Positions 11,520-20,589 of a stretch of 42,961 nucleotides of DNA are shown here, piece after piece (the first letter of the stretch is position 1; every line of letters starts with the position of its first letter). Both the position numbers and the translations under genes were made by a program. Below the pieces are notes generated by a model. It was not told the origin of the DNA. It made no database searches and saw nothing but the letters and a program-made list of their open reading frames with translations. Source of the DNA: Caryophanales bacterium (GTDB lineage Bacteria > Bacillota_I > Bacilli_A > RF39 > UBA660); NCBI GenBank assembly GCA_016288795.1, contig JAEELI010000022.1, positions 1-42,961 on the forward strand, given 5' to 3'.

Positions 11520-11530
11520 CTACTTCTCTT
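11502..11530. terminator. Shared hairpin between convergent genes
   Basis: A 13-base perfect stem, AAGAGAAGTAGTT (11502-11514) and AACTACTTCTCTT (11518-11530), has a 3-base loop and holds both stop codons. The U-tracts on either side are weak, but the position between convergent operons fits a bidirectional terminator. Confidence 0.7.
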
Positions 11531-11957
11531 TATATACACATATATAATATTTTTTATATTTCTTTACTCTAAAATTATGGTTATTAATTGTATCAACATT
11601 TTTTAAACCATAAGATAAGCCCATACCCAAGTATTTAACATAACTTTCTTTTTTAACCCATAATTTAGTCCAATCATGTTCATTTTTTATTGCTTTTATT
11701 TCCTCTTCATTCGCTATTTTATTTAACAATTTCTTTTTATAAGTTAAATGTTCTATATCTACACCAATCTCTTGATCTGATATAGCTATGACAGTATATT
11801 CTTTAGAATGACTTATATTAAAATAAATAGGATTCCCTTTTATATATGGTTTTCCATATTCATTATAACAAATATCATTTTTTATATGATATTTGTTTAA
11901 TATGCTTTCTAAGAATGATTTAGAATCTTTAGTTTTTTTAATAAACAATTTATACAT
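11520..11957 (-). CDS. Sfp-type 4'-phosphopantetheinyl transferase
   Basis: It attaches the phosphopantetheine arm of CoA to the Ser of a carrier protein. It has NISHS (residues 48-51), the Mg-binding GVDIE with D67 and E69, and W100-x2-K103-E104-S105 with K109 before the GMGL motif. At 145 residues it is short for the Sfp group (about 220): the N-terminal half is reduced. It starts 8 bases inside the end of the carrier protein gene, which marks that carrier as its substrate. It is distinct from the trimeric AcpS (no such enzyme seen in this window). Confidence 0.88.
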   Translation of the reverse strand: MYKLFIKKTKDSKSFLESILNKYHIKNDICYNEYGKPYIKGNPIYFNISHSKEYTVIAISDQEIGVDIEHLTYKKKLLNKIANEEEIKAIKNEHDWTKLWVKKESYVKYLGMGLSYGLKNVDTINNHNFRVKKYKKYYICVYKEK

Positions 11958-12174
11958 TTTTTTCTAAATAATTAACAATATCTTGAACTGTTTGAAAATT
12001 CTTTATATCTTGATCTAATATTTTTATATTATATTTTTCTTCAAACGCTACTACTAAATCAACTAAATCTAAAGATTCTAAATCCAAGTCTTTAACTAAA
12101 TTAGTTTTATTAGTTATATCCTTTGTTTCTATTTCTAAAGTGCTTCCTATTAAATTAATAACTTCCTCTTGCAT
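11950..12174 (-). CDS. Acyl carrier protein
   Basis: A 74-residue carrier with the attachment site D-L-E-S34-L-D (the usual DSL has Glu in place of Asp before Ser). The four-helix ACP pattern and acidity are typical. It lies between an AMP-forming ligase and a phosphopantetheinyl transferase with overlaps of 1 and 8 bases, so it is probably a dedicated carrier for this pathway and not the general fatty-acid ACP. The start is ATG with AGGAGGAAT upstream in the ligase gene's end. Confidence 0.92.
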   Translation of the reverse strand: MQEEVINLIGSTLEIETKDITNKTNLVKDLDLESLDLVDLVVAFEEKYNIKILDQDIKNFQTVQDIVNYLEKNV

Positions 12175-13751
12175 TATTCCTCCCCAATTGCTTTAGTTCT
12201 AATAATCTTACCATTATTATTCTTTGGCAATTCTTTGTCTTCTAATAAAACCATAGTTATTTGTTTGTTTTTTGGTTTATTAATATTGTAGTCATACATT
12301 AATTTATCAAAATAGTCTTGATCTTTCAAGTATTCTTCTTCAGGAAAAATCTTTGCTATTATTTTATTATCTTTCTCATAAACAATTACTTCTCTAACAC
12401 CATCATCTTTAAGTAATTCCGTTTCTATTTCTTCAGGACTAATGTTTTCACCATTATTTAAAATAATTATATTTTTTTTTCTTCCAGTAATATATATAAA
12501 TCCATCTTTATCAATATAACCTAAATCACCAGTTTTAAAATAGTCATTTATAAATACAGCTTTAGTACTTTTTTTATCATTATAGTATCCTTTCATTACA
12601 GAAGGACCTTTAATACATATTTCTTTATCTATTATTTTAACTTCTAATCCCCTTATGGGAACGCCAACACTATTAGAACGTTTATAAAAGTTTCTATTAA
12701 CTGATACAACTGGAGAGCATTCTGTTATACCATAACCATTTAATATTTCAATACCTATACTATGAAACCAATCTATATATGTTTGATTTAAATATGCTCC
12801 CCCACAAATAATATATTTTAATTCTCCCCCAAATTCTTTTAATATGCTTTTAAATAATTTTTTGCGCATATCTATACCAATACTTAACATAAAATTACTC
12901 AATTTAATATTATTTCTTAATAATACTTCTTTGTTCTTTTTTCTAGCATTTTTCCATATTTGTTTATAAAAGTTTTCTACAAATAGGGGAACAACAAAAA
13001 TTGTTTCTGGTGCTATTTCTTTTAAATCTCTCATGACATATCTTAGACTATTATTAATAAATACTTCTTTTCCATAGTTAAAAGGCTTTAGAACACTTGT
13101 TATTAGTCCAAAGGTATGATTGAAGGGTAACAAAGAAACAATTCTCCCAGAGGGCTTAAAAAGGCTACAAGCACCATATATATTACTCATAATATTCTTT
13201 TGAGATAATAAAACACCTTTATTAAATCCTGTAGTTCCAGATGTCCAAAAAATAGCAGCATCTTTATCGTTATCTATTTTATATTTATTATTCTTTTTTG
13301 AATATAATTTCATGTAAGAGGATATATCCTCTAAGGGATAACTTTTTATTTTTAATTTATTAATACCTTCATTATAAGTTCTAGAGTAGTATATAGCTTT
13401 AGTTCCACTTAATTTTATCTGTTTAGTTAATAATTCATTATCTATATCTTTATCATAAGGAACACAAACATTACCGCTTAAAATAATACTAAAAAAAGTA
13501 ATAATCCAGTTATATGAATTTTCACCAATTAAACCAATATGCTTATTATTATACATATTATAAAAATAGTTACTTAATGCAAAAACATCTTCATAAACAT
13601 CTTTATATGTTTTTTTTACTAGTTCATCACCATTAAAAAAAGAAAAAGCAACTTTATTAGGAATATTATTATAATTTTCCAAAATCATTTCTTGTAAATT
13701 TTGATAATATATATGATTATAATAAGGATAATTTTTATTTGCTGTTTTCAT
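12174..13751 (-). CDS. AMP-forming acyl ligase (acyl-ACP synthetase-like)
   Basis: It activates a carboxylate as acyl-AMP and transfers it to a thiol, here most likely the adjacent ACP. Core motifs with residues counted from ATG 13751: WTSGTTGFNKG (169-179), NGYGITECSP (338-347), KTGDLG (406-411), GRKKNIIILNNGENISPEE (423-441) and the catalytic Lys515 in NNNGKIIR. The GRKKN-ENISPEE motif is like long-chain fatty-acid ligases rather than DltA. 525 residues. GGGAG (13760-13764) and then ATG 13751 fit a normal start; in-frame GTG 13760 and TTG 13766 lie further upstream. It is the first gene of a tight three-gene operon. Confidence 0.9.
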   Translation of the reverse strand: MKTANKNYPYYNHIYYQNLQEMILENYNNIPNKVAFSFFNGDELVKKTYKDVYEDVFALSNYFYNMYNNKHIGLIGENSYNWIITFFSIILSGNVCVPYDKDIDNELLTKQIKLSGTKAIYYSRTYNEGINKLKIKSYPLEDISSYMKLYSKKNNKYKIDNDKDAAIFWTSGTTGFNKGVLLSQKNIMSNIYGACSLFKPSGRIVSLLPFNHTFGLITSVLKPFNYGKEVFINNSLRYVMRDLKEIAPETIFVVPLFVENFYKQIWKNARKKNKEVLLRNNIKLSNFMLSIGIDMRKKLFKSILKEFGGELKYIICGGAYLNQTYIDWFHSIGIEILNGYGITECSPVVSVNRNFYKRSNSVGVPIRGLEVKIIDKEICIKGPSVMKGYYNDKKSTKAVFINDYFKTGDLGYIDKDGFIYITGRKKNIIILNNGENISPEEIETELLKDDGVREVIVYEKDNKIIAKIFPEEEYLKDQDYFDKLMYDYNINKPKNKQITMVLLEDKELPKNNNGKIIRTKAIGEE

Positions 13752-13766
13752 ATGTCTCACTCCCAA

Positions 13767-13775
13767 ATTATATCA
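13767..13775 (-). promoter_or_regulatory. Extended -10 promoter of the acyl-ligase operon
   Basis: On the minus strand this reads TG-A-TATAAT. The start site should be about 13760, giving a leader of only about 9 bases before ATG 13751, or a leaderless GTG start at 13760. Confidence 0.6.
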
Positions 13776-13803
13776 AATAATCATATATTTTAAAACAAAT
13801 ATA

Positions 13804-13812
13804 TGATAGAAT
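13804..13812 (+). promoter_or_regulatory. Extended -10 promoter of the GT8 operon
   Basis: TG-A-TAGAAT, divergent from the acyl-ligase promoter about 30 bases away. AGAGGTGA and ATG 13840 follow. Confidence 0.5.
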
Positions 13813-13839
13813 ATGATTACACAGTCTAGAGGTGACGCT

Positions 13840-14661
13840 ATGAATATACTTTATTGTGGAGATAAAAATATAATTGATGGATTAGTTATATCAATTTTAT
13901 CTTTATTAAAGAGGACAAAAGAATCATTACATATATATGTTTTAACTATGAAGTATTCTAATGAAGAAAAAGAATTTGATATGATGCCTCAAAGATATAT
14001 CGATTTTTTAGATAAACTTGTTAAAAAGAATAATAAGAATAATTTTGTTAAATTGATAGATGTAACTAAGCAAGTTAAAACTTGCCCGCCAACTGCGAAT
14101 ATTGGCACAAGATTTACTCCATATTGTATGTTAAGACTATATGCTGATTTAATAGATTTGCCATCTAAAATATTATATTTAGATAATGATGTGGTGGCTT
14201 TAAAAGATCCAAAGGAATTTTATGAAATTGATAATAAAGATTATGAATTAGTAGGAGTTTTAGACTACTATGGAAGCCACATTTATAAAAATAATATATT
14301 TAAAAGAGATTATATTAATTCTGGGGTTTTACTTTTAAACTTAGATTTAATAAAGGAAACAGAATTATTTCGTTTGGCTAGAGAAAAATGTCGTGATGAA
14401 AAAATGCTTTTGCCTGATCAACATGCCTTAAATAAACTGTGTAAATTCAAATTAAAAGTTAATAGAAAATATAATGAGCAAAAGAAAATAACTGATAAAA
14501 CCGTGTTTAGACATTTTACAACTACCTTTAAATTTTTTCCTAAGGTTAGAACCCAAACTATTAAACCGTGGAATATTAAAGACTTACATGATATACTTAA
14601 AACACACCAAATAGATGATATCTTGGAAGAATATCAAGATATTATGAGGAGGATAAAATGA
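13840..14661 (+). CDS. GT8 family glycosyltransferase (first of two)
   Basis: It is a retaining, metal-dependent GT-A enzyme that transfers a hexose from a UDP-sugar. The metal site is D115-N-D117 in ILYLDNDVVALKDP; INSGVLLLNL and DQHALNKL follow, both family signatures, and a late His before the C-terminus (RHFTTTFKFFPKVR) is the usual third ligand region. ATG 13840 follows AGAGGTGA (13828-13835). 273 residues. It has no membrane segment, so it acts in the cytoplasm or at the inner face. It overlaps the second GT8 gene by 4 bases; the two likely add successive sugars to a lipid or surface polymer. Confidence 0.9.
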   Translation: MNILYCGDKNIIDGLVISILSLLKRTKESLHIYVLTMKYSNEEKEFDMMPQRYIDFLDKLVKKNNKNNFVKLIDVTKQVKTCPPTANIGTRFTPYCMLRLYADLIDLPSKILYLDNDVVALKDPKEFYEIDNKDYELVGVLDYYGSHIYKNNIFKRDYINSGVLLLNLDLIKETELFRLAREKCRDEKMLLPDQHALNKLCKFKLKVNRKYNEQKKITDKTVFRHFTTTFKFFPKVRTQTIKPWNIKDLHDILKTHQIDDILEEYQDIMRRIK

Positions 14662-15620
14662 ATAACATAAGCATTTTTTACACTATAAATGAAAATTATG
14701 CCCCATATTTATCTGTATCGATTATGTCTTTAATAGATTATGCTAATTCAACGAATAATTATAATATTCATATTATTCATGAAGATTTAACTAAAGAGAC
14801 TATTGATAAATTAAAAGAATTGGAAAAGGGAAATGTTAAATTAGAGTTTATTAATATGATAGATACTATTAAACCATATAAAGATGAATTAAATAAAATG
14901 ATTACAAAAACTCATTTTCCTATAACAGTTTATTATCGTATATTTTTACCTAATATGTTTAAAGAACATGATAAAGGTATATATATTGATGCTGATACTA
15001 CTTTAAACGCTGATATAGCTGAATTATATGAAATGGATTTAGATAACCATTTATTTGCAGGATGTGTTGATAAATCAGTTTTTGATATGCCTTTTGTTGA
15101 CTACTATGAACAATATGTTGGTATATCTAGATATGAATATATTAATTCTGGAGTCTTATTAATGAATATGAAAAGGCTTAGGGAAGTGGATTTTGCCAAA
15201 AAGTTCTTAAGTATATTAAAAAAATATGATTTTGAAGTAGTGGCACCAGATCAAGATTATATTAATCGTTTGGCTAAAGGAAACATTCTTCATATAGATG
15301 AAGTTTGGAATGCTATGCCAGTTTTAAATAAGAAAGAGTTATCTAATCCTAAGTTAATTCATTATAATTTGATGCTAAAACCTTGGCATTATAAAAACAT
15401 ACCCTATGAAAATTATTTTTGGAAGTATGCCAAAAAATCTCCTTTTATAAAAGATATAGAGAATACATTAAATAGTTTTGATGATGAAAAAAAGAAAAAT
15501 GATCAAGCAACTATTGAAAATATGATTGAACAAGCAAGGAGATTAAACGATTCAGATAAAACTATGAAATATATTTTTGAAAATAAAGAAAGAAGAAATA
15601 TAAATGATAGTTGGTGGTAG
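14658..15620 (+). CDS. GT8 family glycosyltransferase (second of two)
   Basis: Same family as the preceding gene but clearly divergent. The metal site D111-A-D113 lies in GIYIDADTTLNADIAELY; YINSGVLLMNMK, PDQDYINRL and HYNLMLKPWHY follow. The last has the conserved H and K/W that close the active site in LgtC-like enzymes. A helical tail (residues 270-320, charged) is extra. 320 residues. The ATG overlaps the upstream gene by four bases (ATGA). Acceptor and donor cannot be told from sequence. Confidence 0.9.
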   Translation: MNNISIFYTINENYAPYLSVSIMSLIDYANSTNNYNIHIIHEDLTKETIDKLKELEKGNVKLEFINMIDTIKPYKDELNKMITKTHFPITVYYRIFLPNMFKEHDKGIYIDADTTLNADIAELYEMDLDNHLFAGCVDKSVFDMPFVDYYEQYVGISRYEYINSGVLLMNMKRLREVDFAKKFLSILKKYDFEVVAPDQDYINRLAKGNILHIDEVWNAMPVLNKKELSNPKLIHYNLMLKPWHYKNIPYENYFWKYAKKSPFIKDIENTLNSFDDEKKKNDQATIENMIEQARRLNDSDKTMKYIFENKERRNINDSWW

Positions 15621-16458
15621 CAAAAAAGAAGTTATTAAGAATATTCAAAAGAACATTTTAGATAATGAATTAAATAAAAAAGTTGAAATAAATGATGCTG
15701 TATTGACTCCTGAGGAGTCCGAAAAGATTCTTAAGAACTTCTATAAAAATAGAAAGAATAAAGTTAGATTTTGGTTTCGAAATAAAAGGTGCTATGCATA
15801 TTTAAGATATATAGATTTAAAAATACATAAGTATATTGAAATAGAAGGACTAGAGAATCTTAAAGATATCAAAGATGGTGCTATTATTACTAATAATCAT
15901 TTTAATCCTTTAGATAGTATGATTGTTAGAAAATTAATTAGAAAAAGATATCATAAAAACATGTATATTGTTAGCCAAGAAACTAATTTATTATTACCAG
16001 GCTTTCTAAAATATCTAGTTAATAACTTAAATATAATTCCTTTAAGTAAAAGCACAAATTATATGATAGAAACATTTAAACCTAACCTAAAAAAAGTATT
16101 AGATAAAAAGAATTATGTATTGATATATCCAGAAGAAGAAATGTGGTTTAATTATAGAAAACCAAGGCCATGCAAAAGGGGAGCTTACCATTTTGCTTCA
16201 GAAATGAATGTTCCAATTATTTCTTGTTTTACGGAAATGGTTGATTTAAATACTCCGGATAATGATGAATTTAATCAAGTGAAATATATTATACATGTTT
16301 TAAAACCAATATATCCTGATTCCCAAAAATCGGTTAGATCTAGTAGCATAGAAATGGCTGAAAAAGATTATAAGCAAAAAGTAGAAGCTTATGAAAAGAT
16401 ATATAATAAAAAACTAGATTATTCTTTTAGCTATGATGATATAGCAGGATGGAGATAG
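15604..16458 (+). CDS. PlsC-like 1-acylglycerol-phosphate acyltransferase
   Basis: This is the acyltransferase fold that uses acyl-ACP or acyl-CoA. The catalytic motif is H99-x4-D104 (NNHFNPLDS), with the later YPEEEMWFNYRKPRP block that binds phosphate and PIISCFTEM. A 90-residue charged helical N-terminus precedes the domain. There is no membrane segment, unlike most PlsC proteins. The gene overlaps the second GT8 by 17 bases. With the acyl ligase and ACP next door, it may acylate a glycolipid made by the two GT8 enzymes; that is an inference from context. Confidence 0.85.
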   Translation: MIVGGSKKEVIKNIQKNILDNELNKKVEINDAVLTPEESEKILKNFYKNRKNKVRFWFRNKRCYAYLRYIDLKIHKYIEIEGLENLKDIKDGAIITNNHFNPLDSMIVRKLIRKRYHKNMYIVSQETNLLLPGFLKYLVNNLNIIPLSKSTNYMIETFKPNLKKVLDKKNYVLIYPEEEMWFNYRKPRPCKRGAYHFASEMNVPIISCFTEMVDLNTPDNDEFNQVKYIIHVLKPIYPDSQKSVRSSSIEMAEKDYKQKVEAYEKIYNKKLDYSFSYDDIAGWR

Positions 16459-16465
16459 GCAATTT

Positions 16466-16486
16466 AAAGACTCCTAAGGGGTCTTT
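16466..16486 (+). terminator. Hairpin after the acyltransferase gene
   Basis: AAAGACTCC (16466-16474) pairs with GGGGTCTTT (16478-16486) with one G-T pair. There is no U-tract, and the right arm overlaps a -35 box, so termination may be partial. Confidence 0.45.
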
Positions 16487-16512
16487 ACATGTGCGTTCCA
16501 ATTCTATATAAT
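16484..16512 (+). promoter_or_regulatory. Promoter of the surface protein pair
   Basis: TTTACA (16484-16489), a 17-base spacer and TATAAT (16507-16512). The -10 lies in a second inverted repeat, ATTCTAT (16501-16507) and ATAGAAT (16517-16523). A hairpin or a protein bound there could control the promoter. Confidence 0.7.
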
Positions 16513-16531
16513 TAACATAGAATGGGAGTAA

Positions 16532-16546
16532 ATGAGTAATTATTAA
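16532..16546 (+). other. Four-codon upstream reading frame
   Basis: ATG-AGT-AAT-TAT-TAA lies behind GGGAG (16524-16528). Its stop overlaps the start of the next gene (TAATG). The surface gene has no ribosome binding site at normal distance (GGGAG is 17 bases away), so re-initiation after this tiny frame could drive it. Speculative. Confidence 0.3.
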
Positions 16547-18165
16547 TGAAAAGGGATAAAGTAAAACTTAATGTATTAATGATTATAGTGGTTCTATTAA
16601 TAATAGGACTTCCTTTTACATTGGCTTTTTTTACTGTCCAAACTAACAGTAGTTTTAGTTCATTTTTAATTCAAAGTAGTATAGAAGAATTTCGACCAGA
16701 TATAAAAATTAATATAAACGGAACAGTAAATGAAGCCGCGAATTATACAAGAAATATAAGTTGTTCAACAGGAGCAACTCCATATTGGAATAGAAAATGG
16801 GATAGTTTAGTATTTAGTAATGTAGCAGATGAAGAAGAGGTATGCGGATTAACATATACTCAAGATACAAGTAATCATGATAGTGCATTATTATCAACAG
16901 TGGTTCAAAACAACGCTATTGATGAAAGTTTTATACTTCAGGATTTTACGATTGTTGCTGATGTAACAAATTCTTTAGTAAATCCAACTCAATTTCATTA
17001 TTCTAGTGCCACCGCTACGTCCGGTACTTCATTGTTAGTATGGAGTTTAAATGCAAACAATGAATATGAATCGGATCCAAGTTTAATGACTTATAATGGA
17101 GGTAGATATTATCATATATATGCCGGAGTTCCAGAATCCGGAAACTATCGAATATGTTATACGATATCATCCGGCTCAAGTTCGGTGAATAACGGATTAT
17201 ATATAGCAATAAACGGAACTACCAAATATAGTATTTTATCTTCAACATCTGAGGAAAAATCGGGATGTTATGATTTTTACTCATTAACAACAAGTGACTA
17301 TATTAATATATCTGTAAGAAAATATAATGCGTCAGCAGTAGTTCCAGTGATGAAATTTAGAATAGAGAGAGCCAATAATAATACTGCATATAACCCAGGA
17401 TATAGATATGAAGGTACAAATCCAGATAATTACATATGGTTTAATAATGAAATGTGGAGAATAATAGGATTAGTTCCAACATGCACAAGTGCTAATTGTG
17501 CAACAAGCCAAAACTTAGTAAAAATAATCAGAAATGATTCAATTGGTGGAATAGTTTTTGATGATGTGACTTATGGTGCCGGAACAGGTTTTTGGGGCAA
17601 TAATTCTTTATATACACTGTTAAATAATTATTATTGGGGAAAGCAAGATGGAACATTTACGAATAATTGCTATGCATATTCTAACTCAGCTAGGGGTAAG
17701 TGTGATTATGGAGATATTGGATTACAAAGTAATGATTACTACGGAAGTATGGTGGAAAATGTATATTGGAATATTGGATCAGCCTCGAGCAACCAAAATG
17801 TCCAATATGCATATGCAAGTGAAATACAGACCCAAACAGTTCAGGGGCATATAGGTGTGATGAACGTAAGCGATTATGGATACGCAAGTAGTAATCAAAC
17901 TGTGATTCTACAAAATTATGATTTTACATCAGTAACATTAGCAAATTGGTTATATAAATACAGCTTTGAATGGACAATGACGAATAAAGATAATAAGGAC
18001 CAGGCAGTACAAGCTATTAGTGAATCTGGTTCTATTCTTGTTAATTCATCAAGTAACAACATTAATTTTGGATACCAAGTTCGACCAGTAGTATATCTAT
18101 CTCCAAATGTGTATGTAGTTAGTGGAACAGGGACAGAAGCAGATCCATATATGGTAGCTAAATAG
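16546..18165 (+). CDS. Anchored surface protein A (tandem paralogue 1)
   Basis: An N-terminal hydrophobic segment (about residues 9-29, VLMIIVVLLIIGLPFTLAF) is a signal peptide or anchor, so the rest is outside. Residues 33-135 are specific to this copy. From NPTQFHYS onward it parallels the next gene: a beta-rich middle domain (EYESDPSLMTYNGGRYYH, ISVRKYNASAVVPVMKF), a second domain (YRYEGTNPDNYIWFNNEMWR, YYWGKQDGT, YYGSMVENVYWN), and an end VRPVVYLSPNVYVVSGTGTE. Cysteines often come in close pairs. The C-terminal domain resembles repeat surface proteins common in uncultured gut Firmicutes. The start ATG 16546 is not preceded by a standard ribosome binding site. Function unknown; adhesion or a shell is possible. 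Confidence 0.85.
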   Translation: MKRDKVKLNVLMIIVVLLIIGLPFTLAFFTVQTNSSFSSFLIQSSIEEFRPDIKININGTVNEAANYTRNISCSTGATPYWNRKWDSLVFSNVADEEEVCGLTYTQDTSNHDSALLSTVVQNNAIDESFILQDFTIVADVTNSLVNPTQFHYSSATATSGTSLLVWSLNANNEYESDPSLMTYNGGRYYHIYAGVPESGNYRICYTISSGSSSVNNGLYIAINGTTKYSILSSTSEEKSGCYDFYSLTTSDYINISVRKYNASAVVPVMKFRIERANNNTAYNPGYRYEGTNPDNYIWFNNEMWRIIGLVPTCTSANCATSQNLVKIIRNDSIGGIVFDDVTYGAGTGFWGNNSLYTLLNNYYWGKQDGTFTNNCYAYSNSARGKCDYGDIGLQSNDYYGSMVENVYWNIGSASSNQNVQYAYASEIQTQTVQGHIGVMNVSDYGYASSNQTVILQNYDFTSVTLANWLYKYSFEWTMTNKDNKDQAVQAISESGSILVNSSSNNINFGYQVRPVVYLSPNVYVVSGTGTEADPYMVAK

Positions 18166-18188
18166 TATAAAAAGAAAGGAGGAACTCA

Positions 18189-19814
18189 ATGAAAAAGAAT
18201 TATATATTATTAATTGTAATAGGAATAATATTAACAACATCTTTGTTAATAGTTTTAGTGAGTAAAAATAACCCAAAGAAATTTATGCAAGATGGGGTTA
18301 TGTTTGCAGTTAAAGTAGATGGAGTTCCTCAAGATCACTTTCCAAATGATGGAAATAAATATTATGTAGATATAGAATGTGAAAATGCCCGAGGACAATG
18401 GAAGAGAATGCCTGATTCAAGTGGAAATAACGAAGACTTTAGGATATCAATAGACAACATAACTGGAAAAGTAGAATGTAGTGTTGACTTTCAAACAATT
18501 GATTTAAATAATAATAATGAAGAGTATTTACTTAATAACATAGTAGAAGAAAAAGCAATTAAAGAAGAGTTTAGTATTCCGAATTATTCATCGGTAACAA
18601 ATATAACCACTAGTTTAATAAATCCAACTCAATTTCATTATTCAAACTCGACTGGGATAAGTGGAACGCCATTATCAGTATGGAGTTTAAATGAAGATGA
18701 TGAATATGAATCTGATCCGAGTTTAATGACTTATAATGGAGGCAGATATTATCATTTATACGCCCAAATCCCAGAAGAAGGAAATTATCAAGTGTGTTAT
18801 ACGATTGAACCTGTATCAACTAGTTCTTATAATGGGCTATATATTGCTATAAATAATACTCAAAAAGCGTATTCCTATGCGACTACATCTTTAATTGCGT
18901 CAAGATGTTTTGAATTAGGGCAACTGTCCACAAGTGATTATATTAATATTTCTGCAAGAAAATATAATGCATCAGCAACTGTTCCAGTTATGAAATTTAG
19001 ATTAGAAAAATCAAATGAAAATGTTAATTACGATGCAGGATATAGATATGAAGGAACAAACCCAAATAACTATATATGGTTTAATAATGAGAAATGGAGA
19101 ATAATAGGACTAATTCCAACATGCACATCTTCTGGATGTGCCACATCACAAAATTTAATAAAAATAATAAGAAAAGATTCAATAGGAAGTTTTGCATATG
19201 ATGCAAAAGCGTCAAACTATACTGGAGAATGGGGAAATAATACTCTCTACACATTATTGAATGCATATTATTGGGGAAAACAGGACGGAACAAATACAGC
19301 ATATTGTTATAGGCGGTTAAATACTGTAAAGGGAAAGTGTGACTATACTGTAATCGGATTATCTGAAAGTGATTTCTATGGAAGTATGGTAGAGAATGTT
19401 TACTGGAATACTGGCGCTTCCGTATATAATGCAACAGCAAATCAATCATATGCAAACGAAACACAAAGGCAAACACTCCAGGGAAGAGTGGGTATAATGA
19501 ATGCAAGTGATTACGGATATGGCTACTATAGCACCAATCGTAGTGTTAGTTTAAGCACAATTCAATCACTTTTATTAAATCAAGAGAATTGGTTATACTC
19601 TTCTAGCTATCAATGGACGTGTACTCAATATTCTGCTCCCGAAAGCGTTTTTAATGTATCTTATACTGGCGGAATAGATGGAACTACAAACTCACAGGCT
19701 TCTTTAAGTAATCTAGTTCGTCCCGTAGTTTACCTATCTCCAAATGTATATGTAGTTGGTGGCAACGGAACTGAAGCAACACCTTATCAAATAGCTAAAT
19801 ATACTAGTTCATAA
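18189..19814 (+). CDS. Anchored surface protein B (tandem paralogue 2)
   Basis: 541 residues, almost the length of the preceding gene and plainly homologous from about residue 130 on: SVWSLNEDDEYESDPSLMTY, ARKYNASATVPVMKF, YRYEGTNPNNYIWFNNEKWR, YYWGKQDGT, YGSMVENVYWN and VRPVVYLSPNVYVVGGNGTE. The N-terminal hydrophobic segment (residues 5-24) differs in sequence from copy A, as does the 25-130 region. AAAGGAGG precedes ATG 18189 at good spacing, so it should be translated more strongly than copy A. It lies 23 bases after copy A without its own promoter, hence an operon. A bidirectional terminator follows. Confidence 0.87.
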   Translation: MKKNYILLIVIGIILTTSLLIVLVSKNNPKKFMQDGVMFAVKVDGVPQDHFPNDGNKYYVDIECENARGQWKRMPDSSGNNEDFRISIDNITGKVECSVDFQTIDLNNNNEEYLLNNIVEEKAIKEEFSIPNYSSVTNITTSLINPTQFHYSNSTGISGTPLSVWSLNEDDEYESDPSLMTYNGGRYYHLYAQIPEEGNYQVCYTIEPVSTSSYNGLYIAINNTQKAYSYATTSLIASRCFELGQLSTSDYINISARKYNASATVPVMKFRLEKSNENVNYDAGYRYEGTNPNNYIWFNNEKWRIIGLIPTCTSSGCATSQNLIKIIRKDSIGSFAYDAKASNYTGEWGNNTLYTLLNAYYWGKQDGTNTAYCYRRLNTVKGKCDYTVIGLSESDFYGSMVENVYWNTGASVYNATANQSYANETQRQTLQGRVGIMNASDYGYGYYSTNRSVSLSTIQSLLLNQENWLYSSSYQWTCTQYSAPESVFNVSYTGGIDGTTNSQASLSNLVRPVVYLSPNVYVVGGNGTEATPYQIAKYTSS

Positions 19815-19821
19815 AAAAAAG

Positions 19822-19846
19822 ATAGTTCGTTAAGAACTATTTTTTT
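19822..19846. terminator. Bidirectional intrinsic terminator
   Basis: ATAGTTC (19822-19828), loop GTTAA and GAACTAT (19834-19840) are followed by seven T on the plus strand and preceded by eight A (T on the minus strand). It serves both convergent genes; the minus gene's stop lies inside. Confidence 0.9.
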
Positions 19847-20589
19847 ATATACTTTATATATTCATAATTACTTGATTTTGCTCTATTAGTCATAGTTTCA
19901 TGGACTATATCATGTAAATAATTAATGTTTTCTTTTCTAGTTAAATTATCTTTTATATTAAATGGTCCATCTACAAATATAGTAATCTTAGGTCTTTTTA
20001 AATATTTTCTTTTTTGATATGTAGTTGTAGCTACAAAAACTGGGGCACTATAGTCTACTGGAAAATGAAACGCTGATTTATTAAAAGGTCTTATGAATGT
20101 TGAATATGGCCATAAATGTGCCTCTGGGTAAATAACTATGCATTTATTTTTATTGATATAGTGACTAATGGCATCCTTTAATTCCTTTAATTTAGTTATA
20201 CCATTAGGTATAGGTAATGCTCCTGCTAGAGGCAATATCTTTCCTATGACTGGAATGCCTAAGTTAGCTGGACTACATATAATATATGGATGTTTAGGAA
20301 TAGTTAGTAATACTGGATTAAATACATCCCCAAATTCTAAAGTATGATTACTATATAAATAATAGTTTTTCTCTTTTTTTAATATCTTTTTATTAACTAT
20401 CTTAATTCTTAAATATAATTTTGAATATATAAAAGCTACAATAATAAAGATAAAATGAAAAAAATGAGATAATAATTTATAAAAAATATTATTATGAATA
20501 TATTTATAATTATCTTTTATAACATAATCTTGATTCTTATTCTTAATAATGTCTTCTTCATAAGAAGAATAGTAAATGGTTTTTTTCAT
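19837..20589 (-). CDS. Membrane-bound lysophospholipid acyltransferase-like protein
   Basis: A PlsC-like protein with one membrane segment (residues 40-58, LLSHFFHFIFIIVAFIYS). The motif SNHTLEFGD has H82 and D88, that is H-x5-D instead of the usual H-x4-D. The later YPEAHLWPYSTFIRPFNKSAF block is as expected, with PVDYSAPVFVATTT after it. It may be a subfamily whose catalytic loop is one residue longer; activity is likely but not certain. 250 residues. It is on its own transcription unit, near the other lipid genes but convergent to the surface proteins. Confidence 0.82.
   Translation of the reverse strand: MKKTIYYSSYEEDIIKNKNQDYVIKDNYKYIHNNIFYKLLSHFFHFIFIIVAFIYSKLYLRIKIVNKKILKKEKNYYLYSNHTLEFGDVFNPVLLTIPKHPYIICSPANLGIPVIGKILPLAGALPIPNGITKLKELKDAISHYINKNKCIVIYPEAHLWPYSTFIRPFNKSAFHFPVDYSAPVFVATTTYQKRKYLKRPKITIFVDGPFNIKDNLTRKENINYLHDIVHETMTNRAKSSNYEYIKYIKK

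What the first reader, a model, noticed from the sequence alone, without database searches (positions are those of the whole stretch)
11520..16458. Divergent island joining dedicated acyl activation (ligase, ACP, Sfp-type transferase) with two GT8 enzymes and an acyltransferase
Seen: three overlapping genes on the minus strand and three on the plus strand from a shared 60-base promoter region. Known: each family is clear. Inference: fatty acid is loaded on the special ACP and passed to a glycosylated lipid or polymer acceptor. A separate carrier with its own Sfp-type transferase outside fatty-acid synthesis or peptide assembly is unusual. It could be an undescribed glycolipid or lipoglycan pathway.
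Basis: partly seen in the sequence, partly recalled or inferred. Interest (0 to 1): 0.55.

Follow-up and report, generated by a model that had tools for sequence, protein, structure and literature searches.

The report
Glycolipid island with own fatty-acid carrier
A compact, repeatedly exchanged set of seven genes in small-genome bacteria seems to load scavenged fatty acids onto a private carrier protein and attach them to a sugar-lipid, a glycolipid pathway that we did not find described.

Summary
The six genes are real and in the stated order. Of 30 related loci in the same family, 25 hold all six genes; of the other five, two are cut by contig ends, two lack the PPT gene, one lacks GT8a. 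Flanking window genes recur in at most 2 of 22 loci, so the borders are sharp. A seventh gene was missed: a second PlsC-like acyltransferase, AT2 (window 19837-20589, minus), beside AT1 in most relatives. The unit is two modules. The core (GT8a, GT8b, AT1, AT2) occurs alone in other families, where GT8b and AT1 are fused in 7 of 16 loci. The supply module (ligase, ACP, PPT) was joined to it; in one distant genome a ligase-ACP fusion follows the core. Three of five island genomes checked have no ketosynthase; none of the five has PlsX. Both acyltransferases lack the phosphate-binding Arg of LPA acyltransferases. Best reading: scavenged fatty acid is loaded on a dedicated ACP and used to acylate a glycolipid made by the GT8 pair. 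Product, acceptor and ligase specificity are inferred. Specialised acyl-ACP synthetase/ACP pairs are known (AasR/AcpR); this glycosyl-acyl core was not found described.

The parts
11520..11957 (-). PPT: Sfp-type 4'-phosphopantetheinyl transferase (145 aa)
   Evidence: PF01648 E=1.7e-11; PDB Sfp 1qr0 E=2.9e-9; D67, E86, W100, K103, E104 invariant in 28 homologues; only PPT found in the genome
11950..12174 (-). ACP: acyl carrier protein (74 aa)
   Evidence: PF00550 E=2.5e-12; S34 invariant in 31 sequences
12174..13751 (-). LIG: AMP-forming acyl ligase (ORF runs to 13766; likely start ATG 13751)
   Evidence: PF00501 E=2.7e-53; TSGTTG, NGYGI.E, TGD and K520 invariant in 29
13752..13839 (.). divergent spacer between the likely start codons
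   Evidence: promoter-like sites are not above chance over the region
13840..14661 (+). GT8a: family-8 glycosyltransferase (ORF opens at 13813; likely start ATG 13840)
   Evidence: PF01501 E=8.6e-17; D124/D126 (DXD) invariant in 36
14658..15620 (+). GT8b: family-8 glycosyltransferase, LgtC-like
   Evidence: PF01501 E=4e-41; PDB 1ss9 and 1g9r (LgtC) E=5.9e-18 and 7.4e-17; D111/D113 invariant in 43; fused to AT1 in 7 loci
15604..16458 (+). AT1: PlsC-like (LPLAT) acyltransferase, NHFNPLD ... YPEEEMW
   Evidence: PF01553 E=2.1e-14; N98, H99, E177 invariant in 46; model matches PlsC 5kym Z 11.7 and PatA 5f2z Z 11.6
16546..19814 (+). NOT part of the unit: two related large ORFs (539 and 541 aa) lying between AT1 and AT2 in this genome
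   Evidence: no Pfam or NCBIfam family; found in 1 of 22 relatives' loci
19837..20589 (-). AT2: second PlsC-like acyltransferase, NHTLEFGD ...
   Evidence: PF01553 E=9e-6; in the locus with AT1 in 24 of 30 loci; H82, D88, E156, H158 invariant in 35

Best explanation
A horizontally exchanged seven-gene island for an acylated glycolipid. The PPT turns the ACP into its holo form; the ligase adenylates a free (probably scavenged) fatty acid and loads it on that ACP; GT8a and GT8b add sugars to a lipid or glycerol acceptor; AT1 and AT2 move acyl groups from the ACP to non-phosphorylated hydroxyls (of the sugar or of a glycosyl-glycerol), with AT1 working directly on the substrate or product of GT8b. 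Shown: the genes, intact catalytic motifs, linkage, fusions, selection, lack of ketosynthase and PlsX. Inferred: fatty acid as substrate, acyl-ACP as donor, glycolipid as product, order of steps.
For: Linkage: all six genes in 25 of 30 loci of the family, AT2 in 24 of 30; flanks are not kept. Co-occurrence: in 98 genomes of the family GT8a (E<=1e-20) is in 5, and the same five hold the ligase orthologue (55-100% identity) and AT1; AT1 has one further partial match. Fusions: GT8b-AT1 in one ORF in 7 of 16 loci of other families (Pfam checked on two); ligase and ACP in one 657-aa ORF beside a core in L164. Re-linking: in G066 the ligase, ACP and PPT are as close as expected, but GT8a, GT8b, AT1 and AT2 lie 5.8, 2.1, 3.8 and 4.2 sd below expectation, yet sit next to them. 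No ketosynthase in 3 of 5 island genomes, the own one included; no PlsX in any of five. The ligase keeps L213, P214, H217, a pattern typical of acyl/aryl rather than amino-acid activators (recalled). No Arg at the fourth place of EGTR in any of 46 AT1 or 35 AT2; in PlsC that Arg is placed to bind the LPA phosphate (PMC6688108, passages). Purifying selection: dN 0.01-0.08 against dS 0.2-0.75 in the pairs L091/L092 and L097/L098.
Against: No lipid, enzyme or expression data. Outside the family the core has no ACP supply nearby (15 of 16 loci), so its acyltransferases may use acyl-CoA, and the ACP could be one option only. The ligase's nearest out-of-family homologues sit with a condensation-domain gene, so an aryl or other acid is possible. 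GT8 enzymes can also act on protein or polysaccharide. The own genome is 93% complete, so absences are provisional. Trees of GT8a and AT2 do not reject a joint clade of the G066 core with the other family cores (p-AU 0.21 and 0.53). The AT1 model is of low confidence and that of AT2 failed.
Confidence: 0.6

Rival explanations
1. The island is a fatty-acid salvage route for ordinary phospholipids: ligase-ACP replaces FAS/PlsX supply, AT1 and AT2 act as GPAT/LPAAT; the GT8 genes are passengers.
For: No ketosynthase in the own genome, no PlsX in five island genomes; AT1 model matches PlsC and plant GPAT.
Against: The island is patchy: AT1 in 22 of 385 genomes of the order, island PPT in 19 of 38 genus members, while all need phospholipids. 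Both ATs lack the EGTR Arg. GT8b-AT1 fusions argue against passengers.
Confidence: 0.15
2. It acylates a surface polysaccharide or glycoprotein rather than a membrane glycolipid.
For: GT8 enzymes build such glycans (NCBIfam and PDB hits to lipopolysaccharide galactosyltransferases); the island is exchanged between genera like surface-antigen loci. VexE, an LPLAT, acylates UDP-GlcNAc with acyl-ACP (PMC9597891, abstract).
Against: No polymerase, flippase or exporter in the seven-gene unit, and no further window gene kept beside it.
Confidence: 0.2
3. The ligase-ACP-PPT half makes an unrelated acyl or aryl conjugate and only shares a mobile island with the GT8/AT half.
For: Ligase-ACP homologues outside the family sit with a condensation-domain gene (L187, L188); cores exist without the supply half.
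Against: The supply half stands beside a differently descended core in G066, a ligase-ACP fusion stands beside the core in L164, and in 23 of 30 loci all six genes form one same-strand run.
Confidence: 0.12

Closest known systems
AasR/AcpR with serine palmitoyltransferase in Rhodobacteria (PMC9386255, abstract read)
   Same: specialised acyl-ACP synthetase plus specialised ACP, co-occurring with the lipid enzyme they feed, directing free fatty acids to one lipid class
   Different: feeds serine palmitoyltransferase for sphingolipids; here GT8 and LPLAT enzymes, no such enzyme in the unit, a PPT gene included; other phylum
VexE of the Vi antigen locus (PMC9597891, abstract and part 1 of section 6 read)
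   Same: LPLAT-family enzyme that uses acyl-ACP to acylate a sugar; departs from the HX4D/E motif
   Different: acylates UDP-GlcNAc; TPR domain; Gram-negative capsule; its locus has a single acyltransferase candidate; no ligase or PPT partner is named in the parts read
PatA of mycobacteria (PMC4792965, start of abstract and passages read)
   Same: fold (Z 11.6); acylates a sugar of a glycolipid; catalytic partner is a block-3 Glu, a place that is invariant Glu in AT1 and AT2
   Different: palmitoyl-CoA donor; 11% identity to AT1; no linked ligase or ACP (recalled)
PlsC / LPAAT (TIGR00530)
   Same: PF01553 family and fold (AT1 Z 11.7 to 5kym)
   Different: EGTR replaced by E-E/Q-x-M in AT1 of the islands and by EAHxW in AT2; AT2 has HX5D
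Aryl polyene clusters (PMC8253772, search listing only; gene content recalled)
   Same: ligase, carrier, PPT, acyltransferase and glycosyltransferase in one cluster
   Different: need ketosynthases, ketoreductases and dehydratases, none of which is in this unit

Membership tests
GT8 glycosyltransferase | Pfam Glyco_transf_8 above cut-off with a DXD motif | tested here: met
Sfp-type PPT | PF01648 match with similarity to Sfp rather than AcpS | tested here: met
   one search hits Sfp and human PPT only; the best model is AusB, though far below its cut-off
Acyl-ACP synthetase (AasR-like) | adenylation motifs and catalytic Lys intact | tested here: met
   invariants in 29 sequences
Acyl-ACP synthetase (AasR-like) | acylates its own ACP and not CoA | not testable with these tools
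   needs an enzyme assay
LPA acyltransferase PlsC | motif III EGTR with phosphate-binding Arg | tested here: not met
   no R at that place in 46 AT1 and 35 AT2; role of R from PMC6688108 (passages)
LPLAT superfamily | PF01553 match and fold of PlsC/PatA | tested here: met
   AT1: Pfam, fold on a low-confidence model (pLDDT 58.9). AT2: Pfam only, its model failed (39.6)
Fatty-acid synthase II | ketoacyl synthase in the genome | tested here: not met
   none in G000, G088, G066; present in G082 and G007 in a separate cluster
Dlt D-alanylation operon | MBOAT (DltB) with ligase and carrier | tested here: not met
   no MBOAT in the unit; Dlt-like operons lie elsewhere in relatives
Aryl polyene cluster | ketosynthase in the cluster | tested here: not met

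The most novel reading that the evidence does not exclude
An undescribed class of acylated glycolipid is built by a GT8-LPLAT core that occurs across several families of this class of bacteria; in fatty-acid auxotrophs it has captured a private fatty-acid loading station, and that station's Sfp-type transferase has displaced AcpS as the cell's only carrier-activating enzyme. The locus is swapped in pieces between genera, so it may set a variable membrane surface.
Probability: 0.4. Interest if true: 0.65.

Novelty: new variant of a known kind. Interest (0 to 1): 0.5.

Why it matters
It gives a concrete, testable pathway for membrane glycolipids in a large group of small-genome bacteria some of which seem unable to make fatty acids. 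It also predicts acyltransferases that acylate sugars or glycosyl-glycerol, a GT8-acyltransferase fusion enzyme, and a case in which an island's phosphopantetheinyl transferase has taken over a housekeeping function.

Tried and rejected
Dlt, aryl polyene and FAS readings: rejected by the missing defining genes. A Pta-linked second ACP in all island genomes: rejected; the weak PF00550 hits in L125-L129, L131 and L134 are Dlt-like carriers, so my note 3 was corrected in note 4; among the loci read only the own genome has that ACP together with the island. Regulatory sites: promoter-like matches equal the shuffled mean (75 against 75.6); the inverted repeat at 13782-13805 is not seen in the spacers of the four divergent relatives, and 39 of 100 shuffles have at least one match within 3 mismatches. 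Structure of AT2: model too poor to use, not searched. Core exchange in G066: the distance test is clear, but the AU test rejects a joint clade only for AT1 (p 0.020) and GT8b (0.046), not for GT8a (0.21) or AT2 (0.53). In G082 a PPT at 35% identity lies on another contig (L190). Literature: for clusters of GT8 or glycosyltransferase plus acyltransferase, gave 2, 0, 1 and 0 papers, none describing this core as far as their titles and abstract starts tell; two searches gave nothing usable; PMC7301438 (passages) has no mention of fatty acid. The library holds open-licence papers only. Phage search: only general ligase homologues under 60% identity. Rows dropped before counts: L107 and L108 (contig-end fragments of AT1, G072 and G342) from the family loci, leaving 30 besides the window; L180, L181 and L182 (AT1 not recovered by tblastn at 1e-4) from the 19 out-of-family loci, leaving 16.
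Full report
WHAT IS THERE. The window is contig C3 of a 979-kb, 93% complete genome. Its six reported genes are real: on the minus strand a phosphopantetheinyl transferase (PPT), an acyl carrier protein (ACP) and an AMP-forming ligase; on the plus strand two GT8 glycosyltransferases and a PF01553 acyltransferase (AT1). Ribosome-binding sites and the starts of homologues put the ligase start at 13751 and the GT8a start at 13840, an 88-base spacer.

SEVENTH GENE. A second PlsC-like gene, AT2, lies at 19837-20589 on the minus strand (PF01553). In relatives it is usually the next gene after AT1, convergent with it. In the window two related large ORFs without known family (16546-19814) lie between.

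CONSERVATION. In 98 genomes of the family, GT8a (E<=1e-20) occurs in 5, AT1 (E<=1e-10) in 6, and the close ligase orthologue (55-100% identity) in the same 5 as GT8a. In 385 genomes of the order AT1 (E<=1e-15) occurs in 22, two of them fragments. I read 30 loci besides the window: L003, L045, L047-L049, L091-L106, L136-L144. All six genes are present, at least in part, in 25 of 30. Of the other five, L099 and L144 are cut by contig ends, L048 and L106 lack the PPT, L102 lacks GT8a. AT2 is in 24 of 30; four of the six misses (L103, L105, L139, L143) are at contig ends, L100 and L102 are not. All six lie on one strand in 23 of 30; ligase and core are divergent as in the window in 4 (L048, L102, L104, L106); L045 has a third layout; the remaining two are the cut ones. 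In a control with 22 of these 30 loci, no other window gene recurs in more than 2, whereas each of the seven recurs in 19 to 22. In the close pairs compared, dN is well below dS for the genes.

TWO MODULES. In a phylum sample of 392 genomes, AT1 relatives (E<=1e-15) occur in 19 genomes of other families of the class besides the own. Of the 19 loci, 16 could be read. GT8b and AT1 are one ORF of 590-607 aa in 7 (L166-L172; Pfam checked for L167 and L168); they are neighbours or in one run in 5; and in 4 (L176-L179) another gene takes the GT8 place, a GT2-type glycosyltransferase by Pfam on L176. AT2 is beside them in 10 of 16, GT8a in 6. Ligase-ACP-PPT is missing in 15 of 16. The exception is L164: GT8a, GT8b, AT1, AT2, then a 657-aa protein with an AMP-binding and a PP-binding domain, two more PF01553 genes and a second ligase. 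So an acyl-ACP supply seems to have joined a GT8/acyltransferase core more than once. In G066 (L045) the supply genes match the other islands as well as expected, but all four core genes are 2.1 to 5.8 standard deviations less similar than expected and group with cores of other families (support 98-100). The AU test rejects the alternative only for AT1 and GT8b. G375 and G326, assigned to different genera, share the PPT and inner core genes at 91-99% DNA identity but ligase, ACP and AT2 at 69-77%: recent piecewise exchange.

CHEMISTRY. The ligase keeps the adenylation motifs and the catalytic Lys in 29 of 29 sequences; ACP Ser34 is invariant in 31; the DXD residues are invariant in both GT8 sets. 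AT1 keeps NH and the block-3 Glu in 46 of 46, AT2 in 35 of 35, but no member has the Arg of EGTR, which in PlsC is placed to bind the LPA phosphate (PMC6688108, passages). AT2 has HX5D. In PatA and, by the same paper's alignment, in the lipid A acyltransferases the block-3 acid, not the HX4D Asp, is the catalytic partner (PMC4792965, passages; PMC9597891, section 6 part 1). The AT1 model, of low confidence, matches PlsC and PatA equally well. This points to a non-phosphorylated, sugar-like acceptor, without proving it.

PHYSIOLOGY. No ketoacyl synthase was found in G000, G088 and G066, though G082 and G007 have one, and no PlsX in any of the five, so free fatty acids are probably scavenged, at least in the first three. 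The island PPT is the only PPT found in G000. In the genus, 19 of 38 genomes have the island PPT, 9 an AcpS, 10 neither, none both (with positions checked); the chance of no overlap would be 0.0006 if genomes were independent, which they are not. Seven of those nine AcpS genomes were also searched for AT1 and had none. The own genome keeps a second ACP next to a hydrolase, Pta and AckA (L052); in five loci of four relatives' genomes and more (L114-L118) AcpS stands beside that ACP, in the own genome it does not. The island PPT may therefore have taken over AcpS's work.

MECHANISM AND STANDING. Fatty acid -> acyl-AMP -> acyl-ACP (ligase; PPT makes the holo carrier) -> acyl groups placed by AT1 and AT2 on a glycolipid whose sugars come from GT8a and GT8b. 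Shown: genes, motifs, linkage, fusions, selection. Inferred: every substrate and product. The kind of supply is known (AasR/AcpR, PMC9386255, abstract); acyl-ACP-dependent sugar acylation by an LPLAT is known (VexE, abstract). I did not find this combination in print in searches, which cover open-licence papers only. A guess that the lineage is RF39-like is recall and was not tested.

Noticed in passing
L052 (G000:C17) 13853-18039; L114-L118: A second ACP heads a block with an S15/PepX-like hydrolase, Pta and AckA; in relatives without the island an AcpS stands divergent to it, in the own genome not.
   Followed up: partly
genus of the window, 38 genomes: Island Sfp-type PPT (19) and AcpS (9) never occur together; 10 genomes have no detectable PPT.
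   Followed up: partly
L122, L124, L125, L127-L131: Dlt-like operon with an added PLP decarboxylase-like gene between ligase and carrier, then MBOAT and a gene of about 313 aa.
   Followed up: partly
L050 (G007:C1), L051 (G082:C6): Second cluster with ketosynthase-type genes, an own ligase (36%) and other genes; L050 has a FabH-like gene, L051 a UDP-galactopyranose mutase.
   Followed up: no
window 16546-19814: Two related large ORFs with hydrophobic N-termini and no known family sit between AT1 and AT2; a piece similar to the first is in L102.
   Followed up: no
L187 8395-11523, L188 6718-10256: Ligase-ACP homologues next to a stand-alone condensation-domain protein in two other families.
   Followed up: partly
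L093 versus L094: Mosaic island: PPT, GT8a, GT8b and AT1 91-99% identical in DNA, ligase, ACP and AT2 69-77%, between genomes assigned to different genera.
   Followed up: partly
window 13782-13805: Perfect 9-base inverted repeat between the divergent genes; not seen in the spacers of the divergent relatives.
   Followed up: yes
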